Source: Lacrimispora xylanolytica
GTDB taxonomy: Bacteria; Bacillota; Clostridia; Lachnospirales; Lachnospiraceae
Assembly (NCBI RefSeq): GCF_026723765.1
Contig: NZ_CP113524.1
Location: 1,039,001-1,103,000, forward strand
DNA length: 64,000 bases
Direction: 5' to 3'
The translations under genes were made by a program, and so were the position numbers. The notes beneath the pieces were generated by a model. That model worked only from the letters and a program-made list of their open reading frames with translations. It did no database searches and had not been told where the DNA came from. Positions 22,112 through 35,649 of this stretch are shown here, in pieces; within the stretch, counting starts at the first letter, position 1; each line of letters starts with the position of its first letter.

Positions 22112-23128
22112 ATGTCAAAAGCAGTTACATTGTCCCATATCGCCAAAATCGTGGGTGTCAGCACCGTTACCGTTTCCAAGGCAATGTCTGATAAAAGCGG
22201 TGTCAGTGAGGATATGAGAAATAAGATCAAAGAAGTTGCATCCCAGCTGGGATATCAGATGGTTACTTCCACCAAGAAAGTACGGCCCGAGGGAACCGGG
22301 AATCTGGGAATTTTAATTCCAGCCGGATTTTTAGATAGAGTCAATTCCTTTTACTGGAACATGTATCAGTTTGTAGTGACTTCTGCCTCAGAACGGGGAT
22401 ATTACTGTATCCTTGAAATCGTGAACCAGGAGGAGGAAGCCTCTCTTACCATGCCAAAGATGATTTTAGACGGTAAGGTGGACGGCGTTATTTTAATCGG
22501 TCAGCCAAGCCAGGAGTATTCCAGTTTTTTATGGAGAAATCCCCATGTCCCCGTTGTTTTTATGGATTTTTATGAGGCAAATCAGGAATATGACTGCGTC
22601 ATATCCGATGGTTTTTATGGGATGTATCTCCTTACGGATTATTTAATCAAATGCGGTCATCAAAAGATTGCCTTTGTTGGAACCCCCATGTCCACCAGCA
22701 GCATTACTGACCGGTATTTTGGATACAGGAAAGCTCTTATGGAGCAGGAAATCTCTTTTAAACAGGAATGGGTCATTCAGGACAGGAGCTTATGCGGTAG
22801 CCATAGAGCTTATGAGTCTATTCCACTACCGGATGAGATGCCGACCGCATTTGCATGCAGCAGCGACTATACGGCAGATGTACTGATCAATGGGCTTAGG
22901 GAAGCTGGTTACCGGGTGCCGGAGGATATTTCGGTTGTTGGATTTGATAATTGTGAATGGGACAAAGTAGTAAAGGTCCCCATTACCAGCTATGATGTAC
23001 ACAAAGACAGAATGGCTGAGCTGGCAGTGGGAAATCTGGTAAGTAAGATTAAAAAGGAACCTTATGCTTCTGGAATTCAGATCGTAGCAGGAGGACTGGT
23101 GAAGAAGAAAAGTGTATCAGAAATCTAA
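22112..23128 (+). CDS. LacI-family transcriptional regulator
   Basis: A 338-residue protein. The N-terminal LacI helix-turn-helix (VTLSHIAKIVGVSTVTVSKAMSDKSGVSEDMRNKIKEVASQLGYQ) is followed by a sugar-binding-protein-like effector domain (~65-335) with VDGVILIGQPS, AFVGTPMSTSSITDRYFGYRKAL and VPEDISVVGFDNCEW. It probably controls the mannan oligosaccharide operon, because the operator at its own promoter is repeated before that operon. It ends convergently with the AraC gene, overlapping by four bases at CTAA. Confidence 0.9.
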   Translation: MSKAVTLSHIAKIVGVSTVTVSKAMSDKSGVSEDMRNKIKEVASQLGYQMVTSTKKVRPEGTGNLGILIPAGFLDRVNSFYWNMYQFVVTSASERGYYCILEIVNQEEEASLTMPKMILDGKVDGVILIGQPSQEYSSFLWRNPHVPVVFMDFYEANQEYDCVISDGFYGMYLLTDYLIKCGHQKIAFVGTPMSTSSITDRYFGYRKALMEQEISFKQEWVIQDRSLCGSHRAYESIPLPDEMPTAFACSSDYTADVLINGLREAGYRVPEDISVVGFDNCEWDKVVKVPITSYDVHKDRMAELAVGNLVSKIKKEPYASGIQIVAGGLVKKKSVSEI

Positions 23129-24015
23129 GTGGGCAGGGAATTTTTGTAATTGGCAGGTGTTGTTCCTGTGTATTTGCGAAAGATACGGATAAAATGAGTG
23201 GTGTTTTCCATTCCCACCCGCCGGCCTGCTTCGTATACGGTGATGGCTGGGTCCTGAAGCAGTTTTTTTGCTTCTTCAATTCTCCGCCTGTTTAAATACT
23301 GCAAAGGCGGGACCTGATAAAGCTCGTGAAATTCTCTGGACAGCCGGTATCTGCTGATTCCCAGTGTCTGCTCAAATTGAGTGAGGCTGTGGGAAGAGGC
23401 GTACCGGGTGTCCATTATTTTTTTCATTTCCCTCAAATAAGGAGGGGCCACATCAGACTGGGAGGCAAAAGGAGGCAGGACAGCAGCCGTAAGCAGGTCT
23501 GTAAGAAGCCTGTGATTGATAATTAAGTTGTCCCTGCTTAGGAATTCAGGAATCTCAGTAAGGCGGGAAAAAAGAGACAGGATGTATGGGGTGGATGGAA
23601 TGATAGCAAGATTGCCCCACGTTTTCACAAACTCTCTAAAAAAGAATAAGCATTTTGATTTTTCTATAAACAGCTGGTAATAATTCCAGCTGTTTTTTTC
23701 TGTGTAAATTTTATGCCGGATAGAACCATCGATAAAAAGAAAGGTTTCGGGTGAAAGGGAAAGCCTCTTATCACCAGTTTCGTATACACCGCTTCCTGAT
23801 AAGGTATACAGAATACAAAGACAGGGAAGATCTGTGATTTCGTAACGGTACGGGTAACAGGTATTCATATATCCGGCTGCCATCAGGGAAAGGAGGGAAT
23901 CCCCCTCTTCTGGTGTTAGGGGATATTCAGGTGGCAGGCACTGGCAGGCACTGAAAGCAGAAGTTAGCTTGTTGTTACTTAATAAATGAGCTAAAAAAAG
24001 TTTGTTGAATTCCAA
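23125..24015 (-). CDS. AraC-family transcriptional regulator
   Basis: The C-terminal ~100 residues are a double AraC helix-turn-helix: TQFEQTLGISRYRLSREFHELYQVPPLQYLNRRRIEEAKKLL and RVGMENTTHFIRIFRKYTGTTPANYK. The N-terminal part is a cupin-like sensor (LYTLSGSGVYETGDKRLSLSPETFLFIDGSIRHKIY). A TTG at 24015, preceded by AGAGGTG, is my preferred start (about 296 residues). ATG at 24054 gives 309 but has no ribosome site, and longer versions would add an implausible hydrophobic leader. It is divergent from the mannan ABC operon and is a probable second regulator of it. Confidence 0.83.
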   Translation of the reverse strand: MEFNKLFLAHLLSNNKLTSAFSACQCLPPEYPLTPEEGDSLLSLMAAGYMNTCYPYRYEITDLPCLCILYTLSGSGVYETGDKRLSLSPETFLFIDGSIRHKIYTEKNSWNYYQLFIEKSKCLFFFREFVKTWGNLAIIPSTPYILSLFSRLTEIPEFLSRDNLIINHRLLTDLLTAAVLPPFASQSDVAPPYLREMKKIMDTRYASSHSLTQFEQTLGISRYRLSREFHELYQVPPLQYLNRRRIEEAKKLLQDPAITVYEAGRRVGMENTTHFIRIFRKYTGTTPANYKNSLPT

Positions 24016-24242
24016 AACGCACCTCTTTTCATCTGTTTTTTTATAGTCTAGCATAATAAACCATATAATTAAAGTTAAAAAGAAAATAAAAAAATGATTT
24101 ATATCGAAAGTTACTCGCTGAAATCCAAGATAAATATAACAAAATAAACAAAAAAAACGAAATAAATGATATAAAACAGAGGTAGTGCATAAAAATAAAC
24201 AAGGATTCATGATAAGTCGCAAGAATGGTCGATGATTATGGA

Positions 24243-24326: not shown

Positions 24327-25709
24327 ATGATGAAGGTTTGGAAACGAATTGGGGCGGTAGGACTGGCGGTAGTGATGGGTGTTTCCCTGGCAGGATGCGG
24401 CGGCGCAAAAGCCACAGCAACCCAGGCAGCCAAAGAAGAGAAGGCAGATGAGCTGCCTAAATTTACAGATTTGAAGGTGGGAGAAGATTATAAGGATATC
24501 AAAGCAGATTTAAGATTTATCACACACAAGACAGATATTATTGATACGGTCTTTCAGGATTACATAAAAGAATTTCAGAAGATGTATCCAGGCGTAACAA
24601 TTACATACGAAGGAATCACCAGTTATGCGGATGACATTATTACCAGACTTACTACAGGAGATTGGGGCGATATCTGCATGGTTCCTACTCAGATCGATAA
24701 GAATGAACTTAAAAATTATTTTCTTCCTTTTGGAGATATCACAGAACTGGAAAAGAAGTACGTTATGCTGAATAACTATTCCTATAAAAATGTGGTCTAT
24801 GGAATTCCGTCTATGGGAAATGTGCAGGGAATTGTATATAACAAAAAGGTTTTTACAGATGCAGGGATTACGGAGCTTCCCAAAACGCCCGACGATTTTC
24901 TGGCTGCCTTACAGAAAATCAAGGACAATACAGACGCGATTCCCATGTATACCAATTTCGCAGCAAACTGGACGATGACGGCCTGGGATGCCTATATTAC
25001 AGGATCTGCCACTGGAGATCCGGACTTTGCCAACACCGAACTGCTTCACAGCAAAAATCCATTTGAAAAGCGGGCGGATATGACAGGACCTTATGCGGTT
25101 TATTACGTTTTATATGAGGCTGTGAAACGGGGACTGACGGAAGAAGATCCAACCACAACGGACTGGGAGGGAAGCAAGGGCATGATGAACAGCGGTAAGA
25201 TCGCGACCATGGCACTGGGCTCCTGGTCTGTAGTCCAGATGCAGGGGGCGGGAGATCATGGGGATGATATCGGGTATATGCCATTTCCTATCACGGTGAA
25301 TGGAAAACAATATGTTTCTGCAGCTCCTGATTATAATTATGGGATTAATGTAAACAGCAGCCAGGATAATCAGATTGCTTCCATGCTTTACATCAAATGG
25401 CTTACGGAAAAATCCAAGTTTGCCTACGACCAGGGCGGAATTCCTATTTGCGTAGGAGAAAAGTATCCTGACGTCTATAAGATGTTTGATGGAATTGAAT
25501 TAGTCATCGATAACCCGGCTCCAGAGGGAGAGGAGACACTGTACAATGATATCAACAATGATTCTGAAGTAGGACTTAACGTATCTCCCGATGGAGTTTC
25601 TAAAATCCTGGAAGCAGCCACAACCGGTTCTCCGACTCTTGATGAGATTATGGCTGACTGGAATGCCAGATGGACTGCTTCCCAGAAAAAGTTCGGAGCG
25701 ATCCAATAG
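24327..25709 (+). CDS. Oligosaccharide ABC transporter substrate-binding lipoprotein
   Basis: A 460-residue family-1 extracellular solute-binding protein. The signal MMKVWKRIGAVGLAVVMGVSLAGC has lipobox LAGC. The mature part has the usual EFQKMYPGVTITYEG, TRLTTGDWGDICMVP and GIVYNKKVFTDAGITELPKTPDDFLAAL segments. It captures the oligosaccharide outside the membrane and hands it to the two permeases downstream. With GH130 and epimerase genes following, beta-manno-oligosaccharides are the likely ligand (inference from context). Either ATG (24327 or 24330) fits AAGGAGG. No ATPase gene is in the operon, so a shared MsmK-type ATPase elsewhere is expected. Confidence 0.9.
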   Translation: MMKVWKRIGAVGLAVVMGVSLAGCGGAKATATQAAKEEKADELPKFTDLKVGEDYKDIKADLRFITHKTDIIDTVFQDYIKEFQKMYPGVTITYEGITSYADDIITRLTTGDWGDICMVPTQIDKNELKNYFLPFGDITELEKKYVMLNNYSYKNVVYGIPSMGNVQGIVYNKKVFTDAGITELPKTPDDFLAALQKIKDNTDAIPMYTNFAANWTMTAWDAYITGSATGDPDFANTELLHSKNPFEKRADMTGPYAVYYVLYEAVKRGLTEEDPTTTDWEGSKGMMNSGKIATMALGSWSVVQMQGAGDHGDDIGYMPFPITVNGKQYVSAAPDYNYGINVNSSQDNQIASMLYIKWLTEKSKFAYDQGGIPICVGEKYPDVYKMFDGIELVIDNPAPEGEETLYNDINNDSEVGLNVSPDGVSKILEAATTGSPTLDEIMADWNARWTASQKKFGAIQ

Positions 25710-25721
25710 GAGGAGACAGCT

Positions 25722-26708
25722 TTGGGTAAAAAATCGAACATGGCGGCCCATGTGGTGAAATGGCTCCAAAAGGGGAAAGTGAACCGGTGGCTTGTCATCC
25801 TGACATTTATGTTTATACCTGTATTCCTGCTTTTGGTATTTACCTATATTCCTTTTGTGAAAATGATGGGCTTTAGCTTTTTCGATATGAAGTACATTGG
25901 AAAAAGGGAATATGTAGGAATACAAAATTACCTGGATGTGTTCCAAAGAGATGATTGCTTTAAAGCATTGAGACTGAGCTTTTACTACATAGGGGCATGC
26001 TTTGTTCAGATGTCCCTGGCTCTTTACTTTGCATCGGTACTCAGTACTAATATCCGGTGTGGTAATTTGTTTAAGGGGTTTATGTTTTTTCCATATCTCA
26101 TCTGTGGAATCGCAGTCGGTTTTATTTTTAAGTTTTTCTATACCAGAGGGTTTGTTTTCGATACCGTCCTTTCCTGGTTCGGCTTTACACAGGATCAGTT
26201 GCCTTACTGGCTGAAAGATACGCGGATCAATAATATTTCCATAGCGGCTACCTCGATATGGCGGTACATGGGGCAGAACATGGTTTTATTTATCGGTGCC
26301 ATTATGTCTGTGGATTCCACCATGTATGAGGCGGCTGCCATTGACGGGGCAGATGAATGGAAAAAATTCCGGTATATCGTATTTCCAAGCATTAAAACTG
26401 TAATTGTCCTCAATCTGATTCTATCTATTACTGGTTCCTTAAGCGCATTTGAACCGCCCTATGTCATCACCAACGGAAGCTTTGGAACCGCAACTTATTT
26501 TGTGGTCATGAATAAACTGGCTCATGAAAATCAAAAGGTAGGCCTGGCCTCTGCAATGGCTGTGATTTTACTTGTAATCATTTTGGCAGCTACTCTGTTC
26601 CAGAAACTTATTTTTAGATATTTCTTCGGAGAGGGAGAAGAGGAGTCCTGGCGGGAAAAGAGGATGAGGAGAAAAAGAGAAATGATCTCCCGAAAGGAGG
26701 GGGCTTAG
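25722..26708 (+). CDS. Sugar ABC transporter permease (MalF-like)
   Basis: A 328-residue protein with six predicted membrane segments. The EAA-type coupling loop is YEAAAIDGADEWKKFRYIVFPSIK. It begins with a TTG (25722) after GGAGGAGACAGC. The basic C-terminal tail (EKRMRRKREMISRKEGA) is cytoplasmic. It pairs with the permease encoded directly after it, which starts inside this gene's stop codon. Confidence 0.9.
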   Translation: MGKKSNMAAHVVKWLQKGKVNRWLVILTFMFIPVFLLLVFTYIPFVKMMGFSFFDMKYIGKREYVGIQNYLDVFQRDDCFKALRLSFYYIGACFVQMSLALYFASVLSTNIRCGNLFKGFMFFPYLICGIAVGFIFKFFYTRGFVFDTVLSWFGFTQDQLPYWLKDTRINNISIAATSIWRYMGQNMVLFIGAIMSVDSTMYEAAAIDGADEWKKFRYIVFPSIKTVIVLNLILSITGSLSAFEPPYVITNGSFGTATYFVVMNKLAHENQKVGLASAMAVILLVIILAATLFQKLIFRYFFGEGEEESWREKRMRRKREMISRKEGA

Positions 26709-27553
26709 TGAATCGTCATAAAGTAAAAAAACGATTATGGAAGGTCTTTCAATATCTGACTCTTATGGCGGGCGCTTTTGTATCCGTGACTCCTGTGGTG
26801 GTATGCGTCATAACTGCATGTAAGACAGAAAAAGAATATGCTTCCACCAATGTCATGACCCTTCCCGAAAACTGGCTGTATGGAGGGAATTTCATTCAGG
26901 CCTGGAATCAGGCAAACATGGCAACTGCATTTCGCAATTCCCTTGTGATTTTAGTATTTGTTCTCCTTGGTTCCGTGCTCACAGGTTCCATGCTTGCATA
27001 CATATTGAACCGTTTTAAGTTTCTTGGAAATGGACTCATCAGGAATCTCTTTCTATTTGCCGCCATGCTTCCAGGAATCGCCATGCAGGTATCAGTCTAT
27101 CAGCTGATGTATGAATTTCACTTAATTAATACGCTTACAGGGTACATTATTCTGATGATGGGAACCGATGTAATCTCCATCTACATCTTCATTCAGTTTT
27201 TTGAAAACATCCCCTTATCCTTAGATGAGTCTGCAATTATGGACGGCTGTACGTATTTCGGTGTATTTTTCCGGGTATTAATGCCCCTTTTAAAACCAGC
27301 CATCATAACGGTGATGATATTAAAAGGCGTTGGAACTTATAACGAATACTATATGGCAAACTTATATCTCCAGGATAAGAATCGTCTGGTAACCGTGGCT
27401 ACGTCTCTGTATAAATTTACAGGGCCCCTGGGAAGCCAGTATAACTATATCTGCGCAGGTGTGATCATTACCTTGCTGCCGGCACTTTTTGTATTTATAT
27501 TCTGTCAGAAACAAATATACAGCGGACTGACTCAGGGAGCAGTCAAAGGTTAG
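26708..27553 (+). CDS. Sugar ABC transporter permease (MalG-like)
   Basis: A 281-residue protein with about six membrane segments. Its coupling loop is DESAIMDGCTYFGVFFRVLMPLLKPA, the EAA motif of carbohydrate-uptake type 1 importers. The GTG start at 26708 overlaps the preceding TAG by one base, indicating translational coupling. It is followed nine bases later by a GH130 gene. Confidence 0.9.
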   Translation: MNRHKVKKRLWKVFQYLTLMAGAFVSVTPVVVCVITACKTEKEYASTNVMTLPENWLYGGNFIQAWNQANMATAFRNSLVILVFVLLGSVLTGSMLAYILNRFKFLGNGLIRNLFLFAAMLPGIAMQVSVYQLMYEFHLINTLTGYIILMMGTDVISIYIFIQFFENIPLSLDESAIMDGCTYFGVFFRVLMPLLKPAIITVMILKGVGTYNEYYMANLYLQDKNRLVTVATSLYKFTGPLGSQYNYICAGVIITLLPALFVFIFCQKQIYSGLTQGAVKG

Positions 27554-27562
27554 GAGGAAACC

Positions 27563-28576
27563 ATGAAATTATATACACCTAAAATAAAGGCAATGCCATG
27601 GCAGGAGCCAGCAGGAACATGTACAGGAGCGCCAATCTGGCGCTATACGGAAAATCCTATTATCGGAAGAAATCCCATAGATCATGTGGCCAGGATATTT
27701 AATTCTGCCGTGATTCCCTATGAAAACAGCTTTATCGGTGTGTTTCGGGGAGAGCAGAACAATGGAATTCCCTATATTTATCTTGGCAGAAGCAATGACG
27801 GGATTCATTGGGAGTTTGAGGAAGAAAAGATTACCTTTGTGGATGAGGAGGGCCTTGAGTTCATGCCCAGATATGCCTATGATCCCCGTCTGGTGAAGGT
27901 GGAAGATACCTACTATATCATATGGTGTCAGGATTTTTACGGAGCTTCCATTGGTATGGCGAAAACACAGGATTTTAAGACATTTGTCAGGCTTGAAAAT
28001 CCCTTTCTTCCATTTAACCGGAATGCCGTCTTATTTCCCAGAAAGGTAAACGGGAATTTTATGATGCTTTCCCGTCCCAGTGACAGCGGTCATACCCCTT
28101 TTGGAGATATCTTTCTAAGCGAGAGCCCGGATCTTGTTTACTGGGGAAAACACCGCCACGTAATGGGAAAGGGCAAGGAATGGTGGCAATCCTTAAAGAT
28201 TGGTGGAGGTGCAGCTCCTATTGAGACCAATGAGGGCTGGCTCTTATTTTACCATGGGGTTTCCGGCACCTGCAATGGGTTCGTATACAGCATTGGAGGA
28301 GCTATTTTAGATATTGACAATCCTTCCGTGGTCAAATACCGATGTGAAAATTTCCTTCTTACCCCTGAAACCTGGTATGAGGAACGGGGATTTGTGCCCA
28401 ATGTCTGCTTCCCCTGTGCCACAATCTGTGACCCGGAGGATGGAAGAATAGCCATCTATTACGGCGCGGCAGACAGCTACGTGGCCCTGGCCTTTACAAG
28501 GGCAGAGGAAATAGTCACTTACATAAAAGAACATAGTGTTTTAACAGAAGAGGACCAGGAACCAGGAAGACGATAG
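27563..28576 (+). CDS. GH130 glycoside phosphorylase (beta-1,4-mannooligosaccharide type)
   Basis: A 337-residue five-bladed beta-propeller enzyme of GH130. The catalytic Asp107 is in PRYAYDPRLVKVEDTYYI. Phosphate-binding basic residues are expected in the SRPSDSGH and VFRGEQN regions, and a KIGGGAAPIETNEGWLLFYHG segment is typical. Its length and start (lacking the long N-terminal extension) suit the GH130_2 group, which releases alpha-mannose-1-phosphate from the non-reducing end of beta-1,4-mannooligosaccharides. It is cytoplasmic, with no signal peptide. A GlcNAc-linked mannoside substrate is an alternative. Confidence 0.87.
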   Translation: MKLYTPKIKAMPWQEPAGTCTGAPIWRYTENPIIGRNPIDHVARIFNSAVIPYENSFIGVFRGEQNNGIPYIYLGRSNDGIHWEFEEEKITFVDEEGLEFMPRYAYDPRLVKVEDTYYIIWCQDFYGASIGMAKTQDFKTFVRLENPFLPFNRNAVLFPRKVNGNFMMLSRPSDSGHTPFGDIFLSESPDLVYWGKHRHVMGKGKEWWQSLKIGGGAAPIETNEGWLLFYHGVSGTCNGFVYSIGGAILDIDNPSVVKYRCENFLLTPETWYEERGFVPNVCFPCATICDPEDGRIAIYYGAADSYVALAFTRAEEIVTYIKEHSVLTEEDQEPGRR

Positions 28577-28599
28577 CTGGGGCAGAAAGGGAGTAATAC

Positions 28600-30945
28600 A
28601 TGAAGGAAACGATGGCAGAAGAAATGAAGGAGCATCTGGAGACAAAGCTGCTCCCATTCTGGGAAGGGTTAAAGGATGAGGTGTATGGCGGCTATTACGG
28701 CTACGTGGGCCATGACCTTAAGGTGGATGAAAAGGCAGATAAGGGAGTTATCTTAAACAGCAGGATATTATGGTTCTTTTCCAATGCTTCTATGACTTTA
28801 AAGCGAAAAGACCTTCTGGAATATGCGGATCATAGTTTTCGGTTCCTAAAAAATTTCTGTCTGGACCGGGCAGAAGGAGGGGTGTACTGGTCGGTATCCT
28901 ACGATGGAAAGCCGGTGGACCGGACAAAACACACCTATAATCAGGCATTTGCCGTCTACGCCCTTTCCTCCTATTATGATGCCTCTGGGCAGCCAGAGGC
29001 GTTGGGCCTTGCTTACGATCTTTTTGACCAGATCGAGCATTCCTTCCGGTCTTTAGATGGTTATGGGGAAGCTTACGATGCTTCCTTCCACCCTATCAGT
29101 AATGATAAGCTTTCAGAGCACGGAGTTATGGCAGAAAGAACCATGAACACGCTGCTTCATCTGCTGGAGGCGTATACAGAGCTTTACCGTGTAGACCATG
29201 CTCCCAGAGTGGCAAAAACCCTAAGGCATCTTTTAGATGTATTTGAAAGCCATGTGTTTCATTCCGAAAAAAAGAGGCTGGAGGTATTTTTTGACAATGA
29301 CTGGAAATCTCTTTTAGATCTTCATTCCTATGGTCATGACATAGAGGCTTCCTGGCTCATTGACCGTTGTACTGAAATGCTGGGAGATTTGGAGTATCAA
29401 AAGAGAATGGAGCCATTGACCAGAATGCTGGCAGAACAGGTCTATGAGCTGGCTTATAAAGACCATAGCCTATTAAATGAATGTGAAAATGGCAGAGCGG
29501 ATGAAGACCGGATCTGGTGGGTTCAGGCAGAGGGCGTGGTGGGATTTTTAAATGCCTCTAAGAAGCAGCCGGAGGATTCCAGGTTTCTTAAAGCCGCAGA
29601 GGATATGTGGAGCTACATAAAGAACCGGCTGGTGGACCAAAGACCTGGGTCAGAATGGTTTTACCGGATTTGTGGAGGGGAAGCACCTTCCGGTGACGAT
29701 CCTCTGGTGGAGCCTTGGAAATGCCCTTACCACAATGGAAGGATGTGCATGGAAGCCATAAAGAGACTTGGCATCCTTCACCCGCGGTATGAAGTGGAAA
29801 AAAACAGACAGGAGCAGTTAATTGGCAGGAGGAATGAAAAGACGGATTGGTATAATGGCATCTTAGACCGGTATAAATACCCGGTCCTGACCAGGGACCA
29901 TGTGCCTCTTACCTGGAGATATGATGTTAACTGGAACACCAATCCTTATTTCATGGAGCGTCTCGGTATCAATGCAGTGATGAATGCGGGGGCCATTGAA
30001 TTAAATGGAATGTATTATCTCATTGCAAGGGTGGAAGGAAATGACCGGAAGTCATTTTTTGCGGTAGCAGAAAGCAAGAATGGAATTGATGGTTTCCGTT
30101 TCTTAGAAGAACCGGTCACCCTTCCTGACACTTGCCCGGAAGAAACTAATGTGTATGATATGAGGCTGACAAAGCATGAGGACGGCTGGATTTACGGAGT
30201 ATTCTGCTCAGAAAGCCACGACTCGACTTCTTCTGATTTATCAAGAGCAGTGGCCCAGGCAGGTATTGTCAGAACAAAGGATTTAAAAACCTGGGAGCGG
30301 CTTGATAATCTTAAAACGCTTCGTTCCCCCCAGCAGCGCAATGTCATGCTCCACCCTGAGTTTGTAGAGGGCTGTTACGGGTTTTATACAAGACCCATGG
30401 ATGACTTTATTGAGACTGGAAGCGGCGGTGGAATTGGCTTTGGCCTTTGCAAAGATATCTGCCACGGAGTGATAGACGAAGAGATTATCACCAGCAGACG
30501 CCGTTATCATACTATAACAGAAGCAAAAAATGGAGCAGGGGCTGTTCCCATAAAAACACCGGCAGGCTGGATCCATATCGCTCACGGCGTCAGGAATACG
30601 GCAGCAGGGCTCAGATATGTTCTCTATGCCTTTGCAACGGATTTAAAAGAGCCATCTAAAGTCATAGCAGAGCCATCTGGCCTTCTACTTGGACCAAGAG
30701 GAGAGGAACGGGTAGGAGATGTCTCCAATGTGGTATTTACCAATGGGGCAATTGTTCGTGAAAATGGAGAAGTATATCTTTATTATGCCTCTTCAGATAC
30801 CAGAATCCATGTGGCTGTCACCACTGTGGAGAAGCTAATGGATTATGTGTTTTCTACGCCTTTGGACCCTTTAAGGAGTGCGGATTGTGTGAGGCAGAGA
30901 ATTGCCCTGATTCACAAAAATAAGGAGCTGATTAGGTATGAATGA
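28600..30945 (+). CDS. Fused cellobiose/mannobiose 2-epimerase and GH130 mannosylglucose phosphorylase
   Basis: A 781-residue two-domain protein. Residues ~1-395 are an AGE/cellobiose-2-epimerase (alpha/alpha)6 barrel. GHDIEASWL supplies His246, Glu249 and Trp252, WWVQAE supplies Trp307 and Glu311, and His378 is in CPYHNGRM, matching the catalytic set of known cellobiose 2-epimerases. Residues ~412-781 are GH130 with Asp520 in [16 protein letters not shown], the GH130_1 pattern of 4-O-beta-mannosyl-glucose phosphorylase. The first domain would turn mannobiose into mannosyl-glucose; the second would split it with phosphate into mannose-1-phosphate and glucose. These are usually separate proteins. 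The reading frame is continuous, with no stop or shift at the junction. Confidence 0.9.
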
Positions 30946-32008
30946 GAAGCTGTTTCTAAAAGCGGACCACCCCTTTTTACAGTACTGCGGCAGAATCGGA
31001 AGGGATGACAAGGGGCGGCCGGAATTTATTTATCCCTGCAGTTTTGTAAGGCTGGAATTTATAGGAGCCTCTGTTGAAGTGGAACTGGAGAACCATTCCG
31101 TATACTGGGATAATTACATTGGCTGGATTCTAGATGGAGACCAACAAAAAGCAAAACTTCCCAGGGAAGGAAAAACCAGTCTGTGTCTGGGAAAGGAACT
31201 GGGAGAGGGCAGGCACAGCCTGTTGCTGTTCAAGCGTCAGGATTCCTGCCATACCATTTCCTTAGAGGGGTTCCTACTGCCAGAGGGTGGTTTTCTCGTG
31301 GAACCAGAGCCTCTGCCCAAACGGAGAATTGAGGTTTACGGGGATTCTGTCAGTGCAGGAGAAGTATCAGAGGCCACTGATTATGTGGGAAAAGCAGATC
31401 CGGTTCATCAGGGAGAGTACTCCAATAGCTGGTACTCTTATGCCTGGATGACGGCAAGAAAGCTTCATGCCTTGATCCATAACATCTCCCAGGGCGGAAT
31501 TGCCCTTAGAAATGGAACTGGCTGGTTTGAAGCTCCAAGGCCCATTGGTATGGAGTGGGTCTATGATAAGGTTCAATACCAACCGACCATAGGAAGAACC
31601 AGCCTATGGGATTTTAAGGCCTATCAACCTCATGTGGTCATCATCGCTCTGGGACAAAATGACAGCCACCCAATGGATTTTATGAAGGAAGATTATGATG
31701 GTCAGAAAGCAATGGAATGGAAGGCCCACTACACCTGTTTCATTCAGAAGTTAAGAGAGCTCTATCCACAGGCATATCTAATCCTGACCACAACCATACT
31801 CTGCCATCACCATAACTGGGACAGGGCAATAGAAGAGGTATGGGGCACACTTAAGGATGACCGTGTATCTCATTTTCTTTATAAGAGAAACGGTTGTGGA
31901 ACTCAGGGACATATCAGGATTCCGGAATCAGAGGAAATGGCCGGAGAGCTGTCGGAGTATATCAATGGTTTAGGAGAAGAAATCTGGCGGGATGAATCTC
32001 AGGTTTGA
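30938..32008 (+). CDS. CE2-type carbohydrate acetyl esterase
   Basis: A 356-residue protein with an N-terminal beta-sandwich (~1-120, with [18 protein letters not shown]) and a C-terminal SGNH hydrolase domain. The nucleophile Ser137 is in VYGDSVSAG, a block III-like GQNDSH is present, and His325 is in [14 protein letters not shown]. This is the CE2 layout. There is no signal peptide, so it acts on imported oligosaccharides. In a mannan locus it would remove acetyl groups before epimerisation and phosphorolysis. Its ATG overlaps the previous gene's stop (ATGAATGA) by eight bases. Confidence 0.87.
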
Positions 32009-32032
32009 TGGTCATTTGATGGAGAGCAGATT

Positions 32033-33730
32033 ATGACATATATAGATCAGTATGAATATTGGTGTACCAGTCCTTTGTTTTCCCATGAAATAAAAAAAGA
32101 GCTGGAAGCGATCAGAAATAAGAAAGAAGAAATCAGGAATCGCTTTTCAAAGGAATTGGAATTTGGCACCGGAGGAATCAGAGGAGTTATGGGGGCCGGA
32201 ACCAACCGGATGAACCGGTATACGGTGGCGAGGGTGACTCAGGGACTAGCCAATTATCTTAAAGAGAATGGAAAATGGGAAAAGGGCGTTGGTATCGCCT
32301 ATGATTCCAGACATATGTCCAGGGAATTTGCCGAGGAGACAGCCAGATGCCTGGCTGGAAACCAGATTCCGGTCTACTTGTTTTCCAGACTGACGCCTAC
32401 TCCCTTACTTTCATTTTCTATTTTAAGCCTTTCTCTTGCCGCTGGTATTGTGATCACAGCCAGCCATAATCCACCGGAATACAACGGATATAAGGTATAC
32501 TGGGACGATGGGGCCCAGATTACTTATCCAAAGGACGAGGAAATAGGACGATGTATCACCGGGATAAAGGATTACGGTTCCATCAAGAGACTTTCAATGG
32601 AAGAGGCAGAAGAAAAGGGACTGCTTCATTGGCTGGGAGATGAGCTGGAGGATGAGTATATAAAGGAAATGGAAGAATGGGTATCATCTCCCAAGGCTTT
32701 ATTACAGGCCGCAAGTAAAGTGAATATTGTATACACGCCTCTTCATGGCACCGGGAATCTGCCGGTACGGCGATTGTTATCCCATCTGGGATTTACCAAT
32801 GTGTTTACTGTTGAGGAGCAGATGGAACCAGACGGTGATTTTAAAACAGTAAAGACCCCGAACCCGGAAGAAGAAAGTGCCTTTGTGCTGGCTCTTAAGC
32901 TTGCAAAAAAAGCAGACGCTGATCTTGTTCTGGCTACGGACCCTGATGGAGACCGTATGGGTGTTTATGTAAGGGATGACCAAACCGGTAAGTACTGCCG
33001 TTTGACCGGGAATATGACCGGAATACTCATATGCAATTATCTTCTCTCAAGGAGAAAGGAAACAGGAAACCTCCCTTTAAACGGTGCCGTAATAAAAACC
33101 ATTGTAACCACACAAATGGCAAGACCTCTGGCAGAGAAGTATAAAATGAAGCTGATTGAGGTTTTAACCGGGTTTAAGTACATAGGAGAGCAGATAAAAT
33201 TCTTTGAAGAATCTGAGGAATTTACCTACCAGTTTGGCTTTGAGGAAAGCTGCGGCTGCCTGGTGGAGACCTGTGTCAGAGATAAGGACGCCATTTCAGC
33301 GGTCATGGTCTTGTGCGAGGCCGCGGCCTATTATAAGACAAAGGGCAGTTCTCTCTGGGAAGAATTAAATCAGCTATATGAAGAATTTGGCTATTATCAG
33401 GAGTGTCTGGAATCTGTAACCTTAAAAGGAGAAGATGGTCTGGCTCAAATGAATAAAATCATGGAGACCTTCCGAATCCATTCACCCGTTAGAGCAGGCG
33501 GATTTAAAATAATAAAAAAGGAAGATTATGAAACAGGAGAAGGGATATCAGAACGGTTCCCCAAGTCAAATGTATTACGCTTCCTCTTATCGGAGGATGC
33601 CTGGTTTGCCATCAGACCTTCTGGAACGGAGCCTAAAATCAAGTTTTATTTTGGAGTAAAAGGAAAATCATTTCAGGATGCAGACGAAAAGCTAAAAAGA
33701 TTAAAGAAAGATATTTTAACCAGCATATAA
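32033..33730 (+). CDS. Alpha-D-phosphohexomutase (phosphomannomutase/phosphoglucomutase)
   Basis: A 565-residue four-domain mutase. The catalytic phosphoserine Ser144 is in VITASHNPPEYNGYKVYW. The metal loop is DLVLATDPDGDRMGV. The sugar-specificity loop is FGFEESCGCLV, and the phosphate-binding loop is AIRPSGTEPKIKFY. In this operon it should convert mannose-1-phosphate from the phosphorylases into mannose-6-phosphate. The DNA does not tell whether it also takes glucose phosphates. It starts 24 bases after the esterase gene. Confidence 0.92.
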   Translation: MTYIDQYEYWCTSPLFSHEIKKELEAIRNKKEEIRNRFSKELEFGTGGIRGVMGAGTNRMNRYTVARVTQGLANYLKENGKWEKGVGIAYDSRHMSREFAEETARCLAGNQIPVYLFSRLTPTPLLSFSILSLSLAAGIVITASHNPPEYNGYKVYWDDGAQITYPKDEEIGRCITGIKDYGSIKRLSMEEAEEKGLLHWLGDELEDEYIKEMEEWVSSPKALLQAASKVNIVYTPLHGTGNLPVRRLLSHLGFTNVFTVEEQMEPDGDFKTVKTPNPEEESAFVLALKLAKKADADLVLATDPDGDRMGVYVRDDQTGKYCRLTGNMTGILICNYLLSRRKETGNLPLNGAVIKTIVTTQMARPLAEKYKMKLIEVLTGFKYIGEQIKFFEESEEFTYQFGFEESCGCLVETCVRDKDAISAVMVLCEAAAYYKTKGSSLWEELNQLYEEFGYYQECLESVTLKGEDGLAQMNKIMETFRIHSPVRAGGFKIIKKEDYETGEGISERFPKSNVLRFLLSEDAWFAIRPSGTEPKIKFYFGVKGKSFQDADEKLKRLKKDILTSI

Positions 33731-33743
33731 AAGGGGGAGAAGG

Positions 33744-34895
33744 ATGACATTACGTGGGATTCACTTGGAGAATCCAAGAGATATCATTCAGGCTGTTAAA
33801 AGGGTAAAAGAGGAAAAGCATGGGGTGCTGGCATTTCTTGGCGGTTCCATTACTCAGGGTTCCTTAGCCACAAAACCAGAAACCTGTTATGCTTATCTTG
33901 TATATGAGTGGTGGAAGAAAACATATCCTGATGCAAGTTTTACCTACATCAATGCTGGAATTGGGGGGACCAATTCCTTATTCGGTGCAGCCAGAGTTGA
34001 GGAAGATGTCCTTTCCTGTAATCCGGATTTTCTGATTCTTGATTTTTCGGTCAATGATGACAATACGGATTTTTTCATGGAAACATATGAAAGCCTGATT
34101 GTGCGTATTTTATCCCACTCTAAAAGGCCTGGAGTCATGGCTTTGTGCAATGCCTTTTATGAAGATGGAAGCTCGGCATTTGAGCGTCATAAGAAAGTGC
34201 TGGACCACTATTCCATCCCTTATGTTTCCGTAAGGGAAACTCTTTATCAGGATATATTAGACGGTAAGACAGCCATAAAAGATATAACTCCCGACGGGCT
34301 TCATCCCAATGACGAGGGACATAAAAAAATCGCTGATTTAATCACCATGGCGTTGGAGGAAATAAAAGGAATGGAGCCTGTATCCTCAGAGGAAACAGGT
34401 CAAGCCAATATACCAGTACCCCTAACTCCGTGCAGCTACCAATATGCCAGCCGAATCCAAAACAACATAACTCCGTTTCAGTGCAGGGGCTTTCTACCCG
34501 ATGATTCTGTTAAATGCGGGGTAACCGATGTCTTTAAAAGAGGCTGGATCAGCCGACGCATGGGGGATCGTATTGTTTTTGAGACGGAAGGCAGCTGTCT
34601 TTTGGTACAATACCGAAGAACCATAAAGAGACCTGCGCCAGTGGCAGCAGCCTATGTTGATGGAGACAGGGATCATGGCGTGATTCTGGATGGAAACTTC
34701 GATGAGGAGTGGGGAGACTGTCTGGCTCTGACCACTCTCCTTCATCACGGAAAGCCGGGAAAGCATCTAGTAGAAATTAAGATTCTAAAAGGAGTGGAGG
34801 AAGAGGAAACGCTATTTTATCTGGTATCCATCATACAGTCTGGATCGGAACTTGAATTAAATACGCCCATGGACAGACACTCCCCGATGCAGTAA
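33744..34895 (+). CDS. SGNH esterase with C-terminal beta domain (CE17-like)
   Basis: A 383-residue protein. The N-terminal ~210 residues are an SGNH hydrolase: Ser35 in LGGSITQG, an INAGIGGTNSLFGAARV block, FSVNDD, and the Asp184/His187 dyad in PDGLHPNDEGH. Residues ~225-383 form a beta-rich domain resembling the CBM35-like part of CE17 mannan 2-O-acetylesterases. There is no signal peptide. Known CE2/CE17 pairs act together to clear all acetyl positions on mannan oligosaccharides, and both are in this operon. The CE17 label is from architecture and context. Confidence 0.8.
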   Translation: MTLRGIHLENPRDIIQAVKRVKEEKHGVLAFLGGSITQGSLATKPETCYAYLVYEWWKKTYPDASFTYINAGIGGTNSLFGAARVEEDVLSCNPDFLILDFSVNDDNTDFFMETYESLIVRILSHSKRPGVMALCNAFYEDGSSAFERHKKVLDHYSIPYVSVRETLYQDILDGKTAIKDITPDGLHPNDEGHKKIADLITMALEEIKGMEPVSSEETGQANIPVPLTPCSYQYASRIQNNITPFQCRGFLPDDSVKCGVTDVFKRGWISRRMGDRIVFETEGSCLLVQYRRTIKRPAPVAAAYVDGDRDHGVILDGNFDEEWGDCLALTTLLHHGKPGKHLVEIKILKGVEEEETLFYLVSIIQSGSELELNTPMDRHSPMQ

Positions 34896-35193: not shown

Positions 35194-35649
35194 ATGAAAA
35201 AAAAGTATTTAGTAGTTACAGCACTATCTATGGCTTTATCGATAGGAAGCGCGATGTCTTCATTTGCGGCAGGATTTGTCACCACACCACAGGGAGTAAA
35301 GTACCAGTGGGGATCAGGGGATTATTGTACCAATAACTGGGTCAATTATAAAAGCCATTGGTTTTTCTTTGGCAATGACCAGCTTATGCGTACCGGGTGG
35401 ATTCAAAGAGATAATACCTGGTATTATGCGTCTGATACCGGAGAGCTTCAGGGCGGAATTATGAAGATCAATGACAATGTCTATTACTTCAACACCAGTA
35501 CCCTAAAAATGATGACTGGTCTAATTGATTACAACGGCAGTACACATTATTTTACGGAAAATGGAACCACAGACGGTGGTCCATACGTCTACACAGAATG
35601 GAACAGTGACGGATCCATCAGACGAGGTAAGAAGTTCCCTGTTCGTTAA
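35194..35649 (+). CDS. Small secreted protein with cell-wall-binding repeats
   Basis: A 151-residue protein with a cleavable signal peptide (MKKKYLVVTALSMALSIGSAMSSFAA, AxA-type site). The mature part has aromatic/glycine repeats of the choline-binding/CW_binding type: KSHWFFFGNDQLMRTGWIQR, DNTWYYASDTGELQGGIMKI, NDNVYYFNTSTLKMMTGLID and GSTHYFTENGTTDGG. No catalytic domain is attached, so it is probably a stand-alone wall-attached or surface-coating protein. AAGGAGG precedes the ATG. The gene has its own promoter. Confidence 0.82.
   Translation: MKKKYLVVTALSMALSIGSAMSSFAAGFVTTPQGVKYQWGSGDYCTNNWVNYKSHWFFFGNDQLMRTGWIQRDNTWYYASDTGELQGGIMKINDNVYYFNTSTLKMMTGLIDYNGSTHYFTENGTTDGGPYVYTEWNSDGSIRRGKKFPVR

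What the first reader, a model, noticed from the sequence alone, without database searches (positions are those of the whole stretch)
28600..30945. Single-chain fusion of mannobiose 2-epimerase and GH130 mannosylglucose phosphorylase
The two steps mannobiose to mannosyl-glucose and mannosyl-glucose to mannose-1-phosphate plus glucose are normally done by separate proteins. Here one 781-residue frame carries both. The epimerase set (His246, Glu249, Trp252, Trp307, Glu311, His378) and the GH130 Asp520 motif are all intact, so both halves look active. A fusion would hand the unstable intermediate from one site to the other.
Basis: partly seen in the sequence, partly recalled or inferred. Interest (0 to 1): 0.72.

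Follow-up and report, generated by a model that had tools for sequence, protein, structure and literature searches.

The report
Natural two-in-one mannobiose-splitting enzyme
One bacterial gene carries in a single protein two consecutive enzymes of plant-mannan digestion that most sampled relatives make as two separate proteins, and the joining appears to have happened several times independently.

Summary
Window 28600-30945 (+) is one 781-residue frame: a cellobiose/mannobiose 2-epimerase (1-390, nearest solved chain 3vw5) joined to a GH130 subfamily 1 mannosylglucose phosphorylase (395-779, nearest 5ay9), with catalytic residues present in both. It is not an artefact: the same frame occurs in a second genome of the species, [Clostridium] aerotolerans (95%), Lacrimispora algidixylanolytica (79%) and a MAG (79%), with low dN/dS in both halves. 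It lies in a mannan-oligosaccharide operon and is the only copy of either enzyme found in the genome. In relatives the two genes are usually adjacent but separate: in a family sample of 299 genomes, 54 carry both and 2 are fused. Both half-trees need at least four fused/separate changes, so the fusion probably arose repeatedly (Lacrimispora, another genus of the family, rumen Lachnospiraceae, another family of the order). One Lacrimispora genome holds a relic whose phosphorylase core is deleted. The same phosphorylase is fused to phosphomannomutase, the next enzyme, in Blautia. Eight paper searches aimed at it showed no description of the epimerase fusion in what I saw. Activity, assembly and substrate channelling are untested; the 'unstable intermediate' has no support. 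New variant of a known pathway.

The parts
28600..30945 (+). fused gene: mannobiose/cellobiose 2-epimerase + GH130_1 mannosylglucose phosphorylase, 781 aa
28600..29769 (+). epimerase half, residues 1-390 (catalytic His187, His246, His378 by alignment to 3vw5)
29770..29781 (+). junction, residues 391-394: predicted 4-residue turn between helix 377-390 and helix 395-408
29782..30942 (+). GH130_1 half, residues 395-781 (Asp520 in NVYDMR 517-522; R580-N581, K643, H662, D733 in conserved motifs)
22112..23128 (+). LacI-family regulator
23125..24222 (-). AraC-family regulator
24327..25709 (+). sugar ABC transporter solute-binding protein
25722..26708 (+). ABC transporter permease
26708..27553 (+). 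ABC transporter permease
27563..28576 (+). second GH130 enzyme (taken as GH130_2 manno-oligosaccharide phosphorylase by operon analogy)
   Evidence: 30% identical to the fused GH130 half
30938..32008 (+). CE2-type acetyl esterase; its start overlaps the end of the fused gene
32033..33730 (+). phosphomannomutase/phosphoglucomutase
33744..34895 (+). GDSL/SGNH esterase, possibly a second oligosaccharide deacetylase

Best explanation
A natural bifunctional enzyme for the inner steps of beta-mannan use. Imported, deacetylated manno-oligosaccharides are shortened to mannobiose by the neighbouring GH130. The N-terminal half epimerises the reducing-end mannose of mannobiose to glucose, giving mannosyl-glucose. 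The C-terminal half phosphorolyses that to mannose 1-phosphate and glucose, and the downstream mutase makes mannose 6-phosphate. The fusion came from merging two neighbouring genes already in this order and nearly touching. Its main effect is probably 1:1 production and co-location of the two enzymes. If the GH130 half forms a hexamer as BF0772 does, six epimerase domains would sit on a phosphorylase core. Shown: frame, domains, residues, operon, conservation, more than one origin. Inferred from families and operon analogy: the activities. Inferred only: the assembly and the benefit.
For: Domains. [quoted passage not shown] that these are R. albus RaMP1 and RaCE is recalled). RaCE His184/His243/His374 (named in PMC13281645, passages) align with H187/H246/H378. 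BF0772 Arg94 and the Tyr next to the catalytic Asp (PMC4599007 section 20) correspond to R483 and Y519-D520. Same frame in 5 of 25 genomes of the genus. Against [C.] aerotolerans dN and dS are 0.028 and 0.229 (epimerase), 0.015 and 0.249 (GH130), 0.043 and 0.27 (30 junction codons). In the own genome the search finds only this gene and the 30%-identical neighbouring GH130. The operon shares the core of the characterised R. intestinalis mannan locus, where RiMep and RiGH130_1 are separate co-transcribed genes (PMC6385246, passages). In 132 of 134 held separate pairs (some genomes twice) the GH130_1 domain begins within 400 bases after the epimerase stop. AF2: mean pLDDT 87.9, tight turn at the junction.
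Against: No activity, oligomer or transcript was measured. NCBIfam equivalog cut-offs are not met (EpiA 285.9 of 800; two GH130 models 88.4 of 550 and 79.5 of 450), so the exact substrates rest on similarity to solved enzymes and on the operon. pTM 0.69 leaves the relative placement of the halves uncertain. In-frame ATGs at codons 382 and 384 could also give free GH130. Three genomes of the same genus use separate genes and one has lost the phosphorylase core, so the fusion is not indispensable.
Confidence: 0.86

Rival explanations
1. True substrate channelling: the two active sites are so placed in the assembled fusion that mannosyl-glucose passes over without leaving, and this is why the fusion was selected repeatedly.
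For: Fewest changes between fused and separate is four on both trees and one clade is rejected; GH130_1 is also fused to the next enzyme, phosphomannomutase, in three loci; nearly linkerless junction in two of the four lineages.
Against: R. intestinalis runs the steps with separate enzymes. The genes are adjacent, so fusions form easily without selection for channelling. pTM 0.69 does not fix the geometry. In G265 GH130_1 is joined to a CE2 esterase, not a consecutive step.
Confidence: 0.15
2. Neutral gene merger: loss of the stop between two touching genes of one operon, tolerated because the ends are compatible, with no functional gain.
For: Genes adjacent and nearly touching in relatives; only 2 of 54 fused in the family sample; in G309 the fused gene lost the phosphorylase core in frame while the neighbouring operon genes stayed.
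Against: Kept intact down to 79% identity in five genomes of the genus, and in G985 and G987 of G266's genus.
Confidence: 0.35
3. One gene, two products: an internal start at codon 382 or 384 also yields free GH130_1, so the fusion is partial in the cell.
For: In-frame ATG codons at 382 and 384 with a purine-rich GGAAGG just upstream.
Against: That stretch encodes the epimerase motif HNGRMC(M/F/I/L)E, present also in relatives with separate genes, so it needs no further reason to exist.
Confidence: 0.12
4. Sequencing or assembly artefact hiding a stop or frameshift.
For: Most relatives read have two genes, many overlapping in different frames.
Against: Five assemblies of the genus share the frame; low dN/dS across the junction.
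Confidence: 0.01

Closest known systems
R. albus cellobiose 2-epimerase + mannosylglucose phosphorylase pathway (RaCE, RaMP1; names recalled)
   Same: nearest solved relatives of each half; same two consecutive reactions predicted
   Different: solved as two separate chains, 3vw5 and 5ay9; the original paper is not held
R. intestinalis mannan locus, RiMep and RiGH130_1 (PMC6385246, passages)
   Same: shared core: ABC transporter, two GH130s, epimerase, mutase, esterases
   Different: RiMep and RiGH130_1 are separate co-transcribed genes; that locus has further glycosidases that I did not find next to the window's operon
Bifunctional GH1 glucosidase / mannose-6-phosphate isomerase proteins of Roseburia (PMC6385246, PMC9784577, passages)
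   Same: an already described two-enzyme fusion in the same pathway
   Different: other domains and other steps
GH130_1-phosphomannomutase frames of Blautia (found here)
   Same: same GH130_1 enzyme fused to a pathway neighbour
   Different: joined at the C end to the next enzyme; their epimerase stays separate

Membership tests
cellobiose/mannobiose 2-epimerase (AGE superfamily) | GlcNAc_2-epim domain above the curated cut-off | tested here: met
   PF07221, 120.7 bits against 23.4
cellobiose/mannobiose 2-epimerase (AGE superfamily) | catalytic His184, His243, His374 of RaCE | tested here: met
   H187, H246, H378
NCBIfam equivalog 'cellobiose 2-epimerase EpiA' | curated score cut-off | tested here: not met
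   285.9 bits against 800: not filed as EpiA itself
cellobiose/mannobiose 2-epimerase (AGE superfamily) | epimerises mannobiose or cellobiose | not testable with these tools
   needs an assay
GH130 subfamily 1 mannosylglucose phosphorylase | GH130 domain, closest to solved mannosylglucose phosphorylases | tested here: met
   PF04041 81.7 bits against 26; 5ay9 618 and 3was 509 bits, next GH130 (1vkd) 102.5
GH130 subfamily 1 mannosylglucose phosphorylase | Tyr before the catalytic Asp (GH130_1/2, not the hydrolases) and the Arg94-type +1-site residue of BF0772 | tested here: met
   Y519-D520, R483
GH130 subfamily 1 mannosylglucose phosphorylase | three basic phosphate-binding residues | tested here: inconclusive
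   motifs with R580-N581, K643, H662 are shared with 5ay9 and 3was, but which residues bind phosphate is recalled, not read
NCBIfam GH130 equivalogs (BtaManbiosPhlase, BManbPhaseBMBP) | curated score cut-offs | tested here: not met
   88.4 of 550 and 79.5 of 450 bits: other specificities, not filed there
GH130 subfamily 1 mannosylglucose phosphorylase | N- and C-terminal helices that build a hexamer in BF0772 | tested here: inconclusive
   helices 395-408 and 761-780 predicted (PMC4599007 section 17); oligomer not testable here
two-enzyme fusion | both domains in one uninterrupted frame, conserved across species | tested here: met
substrate-channelling enzyme | intermediate passes without release | not testable with these tools
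   needs coupled kinetics or a structure of the assembly

The most novel reading that the evidence does not exclude
Clostridia repeatedly weld successive enzymes of the mannobiose pathway onto the GH130_1 phosphorylase (epimerase at its N end in four lineages, phosphomannomutase at its C end in Blautia), making its hexamer the scaffold of a natural sugar-channelling particle.
Probability: 0.15. Interest if true: 0.65.

Novelty: new variant of a known kind. Interest (0 to 1): 0.42.

Why it matters
Repeated fusions of the same two consecutive enzymes, with unfused neighbours and a decayed relic as natural controls, make it possible to test whether enzyme fusion improves flux or is a neutral by-product of gene adjacency. 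If active as predicted, the protein is also a ready one-pot catalyst between mannobiose plus phosphate and mannose 1-phosphate plus glucose.

Tried and rejected
Artefact: rejected, since five genomes share the frame. 'Fusion widespread': rejected after reading the DNA. Six long single matches of the family search (L003-L008) are two in-frame genes with one or more stops between them. The search tool's open_frame_aa figure can span stops, so I did not use it to call fusions; frames were re-read from DNA. For pairs whose DNA was not held I compared match coordinates modulo 3 by hand; the two in-frame ones of the family sample (G087, G209) were fetched and are separate. The genome counts 'with both halves' were made by hand from the tables.

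One origin for all fusions: rejected by AU tests (p 4e-41 for the epimerase tree, 6e-5 for the GH130 tree). These used quick trees under LG+G4, with 20 and 25 weakly supported forks and selected rows: 80 chosen of 122 with both halves, plus the relic; rows L068 and L112 (long branches) were dropped. A first epimerase tree held a wrong frame for G266 and was replaced. The count of changes cannot tell gain from loss.

Plasmid collection: 71 records match, 9 with one place covering at least 80% of the query; only one of the 9 (Treponema saccharophilum) was read, and its genes are separate; the other 8 were not checked. Other phyla were not sampled by the genome search.

Papers: ten searches. Eight aimed at the fusion (searches had no hit), one at Lacrimispora and mannan (29), one at the catalytic His (34). 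I saw the listings, passages of seven papers, and passages plus two sections of PMC4599007; the other listed papers were not opened. None of what I saw describes an epimerase-GH130 fusion. The 2012 R. albus paper is not held; subscription journals and domain databases were not searchable. No structure-library search was run.

Full report
Observation. The ORF at 28600-30945 (+) is real, ATG to stop, 781 residues. Pfam places an AGE-type epimerase at 31-357 and GH130 at 479-750. [quoted passage not shown] that these are the R. albus enzymes RaCE and RaMP1 is recalled). RaCE's catalytic His184/243/374, named in PMC13281645 (passages), align with H187/H246/H378. The B. fragilis BF0772 Arg94, and the Tyr beside the catalytic Asp that PMC4599007 section 20 uses to separate phosphorylases from hydrolases, are R483 and Y519-D520 here.

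Surroundings. The gene lies in a compact (+) cluster, 24327-34895: solute-binding protein, two permeases, a second GH130, the fusion, a CE2-type esterase whose start overlaps the fusion's end, a phosphomannomutase and a GDSL esterase; a LacI-type and an AraC-type regulator gene lie just upstream. This is the core of the characterised R. intestinalis mannan locus, where RiMep converts mannobiose to mannosyl-glucose, RiGH130_1 phosphorolyses it and RiPgm makes mannose 6-phosphate, RiMep and RiGH130_1 being separate co-transcribed genes (PMC6385246, passages). I did not look for the endo-mannanase, galactosidase or mannose-6-phosphate isomerase elsewhere in the genome. A search of the window's genome at E 0.001 gives two hits, the fusion and the neighbouring GH130, so the fusion appears to be the sole source of both activities.

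Is the frame real? Of 25 genomes of the genus, 10 match. Five carry the uninterrupted fusion: the window's own, G321 (same species; coordinates equal to the record of Clostridium sp. 12(A)), G299 ([Clostridium] aerotolerans), G300 (Lacrimispora algidixylanolytica) and G308 (MAG UBA7603). Three (G311, G314, G320) have two separate genes in different frames, G322 has both genes broken, and G309 is a relic (that all these belong to Lacrimispora is inferred from record titles and recall). Against [C.] aerotolerans dN and dS are 0.028 and 0.229 (epimerase), 0.043 and 0.27 (30 junction codons), 0.015 and 0.249 (GH130). Against the 79% relatives synonymous sites are near saturation.

The relic. In G309 (contig of 183 kb) the gene reads epimerase, then directly about the last 45 residues of the phosphorylase; the neighbouring operon genes are intact. 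No GH130_1 match passed the limit in that genome. Its epimerase groups with the four distinct fused Lacrimispora ones (99% SH-aLRT, drawn; the five-row set has the same support). So the fused state probably preceded the loss.

How common? Family sample: 69 of 299 genomes match; 54 have both halves and 15 only an epimerase; 2 of 54 are fused, G000 and G266 (frames checked and by coordinates modulo 3). Order sample: 53 of 295 match, 38 with both halves (39 with G495, a partial match at a contig end with stops inside, separate); 4 fused: G000, G321, G300 of the window's genus and G368 of another family. Phylum sample: 20 of 398 match, 12 with both, 1 fused, the window itself. Class sample: 29 of 291 match, 13 with both, 2 fused, both of the window's species. 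The samples overlap in part, and the match limits differ (1e-40 for, 1e-60 for the others). Of the 80 named loci kept from 409 relatives, a capped best list, 6 are fused: L047-L050 (Lacrimispora) and L059, L070 (Lachnospiraceae MAGs, one named as dairy-cattle rumen; the rumen origin of L059 is read from its isolate name). In G266's genus (4 of 4 match), G985 and G987 show the complete fused frame; G266 is split by a contig break and reads 779 residues when joined over an exact 141-base overlap; G986 is cut at residue 251. In G368's family 3 of 8 match and only G368 is fused.

Origin. On trees of the epimerase halves (79 rows) and GH130 halves (78 rows) the fewest changes between fused and separate is four on each. 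Holding all fused rows together is rejected (p 4e-41 and 6e-5); support within the trees is modest (20 and 25 weak forks). The groups are Lacrimispora, G266, L059/L070 and G368. In Lacrimispora and G266 the junction is nearly linkerless (42 and 44 residues between the starts of the last epimerase motif and the first GH130 motif); in the other two it is 55-57. The raw material is at hand: in 132 of 134 held separate pairs (some genomes counted twice) the GH130_1 domain starts within 400 bases after the epimerase stop, mostly within 100. The motifs checked are intact in all fused proteins tested, except that SSDTR near the GH130 end is not matched exactly in L059 and L070.

Structure. AlphaFold2 on 41 aligned sequences gives mean pLDDT 87.9 and pTM 0.69. 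The last epimerase helix (377-390) is followed by a four-residue turn and the first GH130 helix (395-408); the ten-residue blocks there have pLDDT 92, 85 and 95. In BF0772 the N- and C-terminal helices mediate a hexamer (PMC4599007 section 17). The fusion thus attaches the epimerase at what is an assembly helix in that relative. Whether a hexamer forms here is not shown.

Mechanism. [quoted passage not shown] Channelling is possible but unproven, and 'unstable intermediate' is not supported. Suggestive of a value in joining steps: the same GH130_1 is fused to phosphomannomutase in Blautia wexlerae, B. schinkii and a MAG (L124, L091, L125). Against a simple rule: in G265 it is fused to a CE2 esterase, not a consecutive step.

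Novelty. The parts and both reactions are known. The chain architecture and its repeated origin were not described in what I saw of eight paper searches aimed at it, in a library without most subscription journals. Bifunctional GH1/mannose-6-phosphate isomerase proteins are already described in the same pathway. Hence a new variant of a known kind, of moderate interest.

Noticed in passing
L124:7160-10012, L125:5218-8070, L091:8066-10942: GH130_1 phosphorylase in one open frame with a phosphomannomutase (PGM_PMM I-IV; domain IV below cut-off in L091) in Blautia wexlerae, a Clostridia MAG and Blautia schinkii: fusion to the next pathway step.
   Followed up: partly
L188:2046-4277 (-) / L011:445-2676 (-): GH130_1 fused to a CE2-type acetyl esterase in a single-contig genome of the family, G265.
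   Followed up: partly
L183:4256-5578 (-): Relic in a genome of the window's genus (G309): fused gene that lost the phosphorylase core in frame, keeping the epimerase and the phosphorylase's C-terminal stretch; neighbouring operon genes intact.
   Followed up: yes
G322:C1:3938404-3940669 (L040, L044-L046): In another genome of the genus the epimerase and phosphorylase genes are each broken into two frames.
   Followed up: no
window 29743-29751: In-frame ATG codons (382, 384) with a GGAAGG stretch upstream inside the fused gene: possible internal start for free GH130.
   Followed up: partly
window 35194-35649: Small protein with choline-binding (cell-wall binding) repeats just after the mannan operon.
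   Followed up: no
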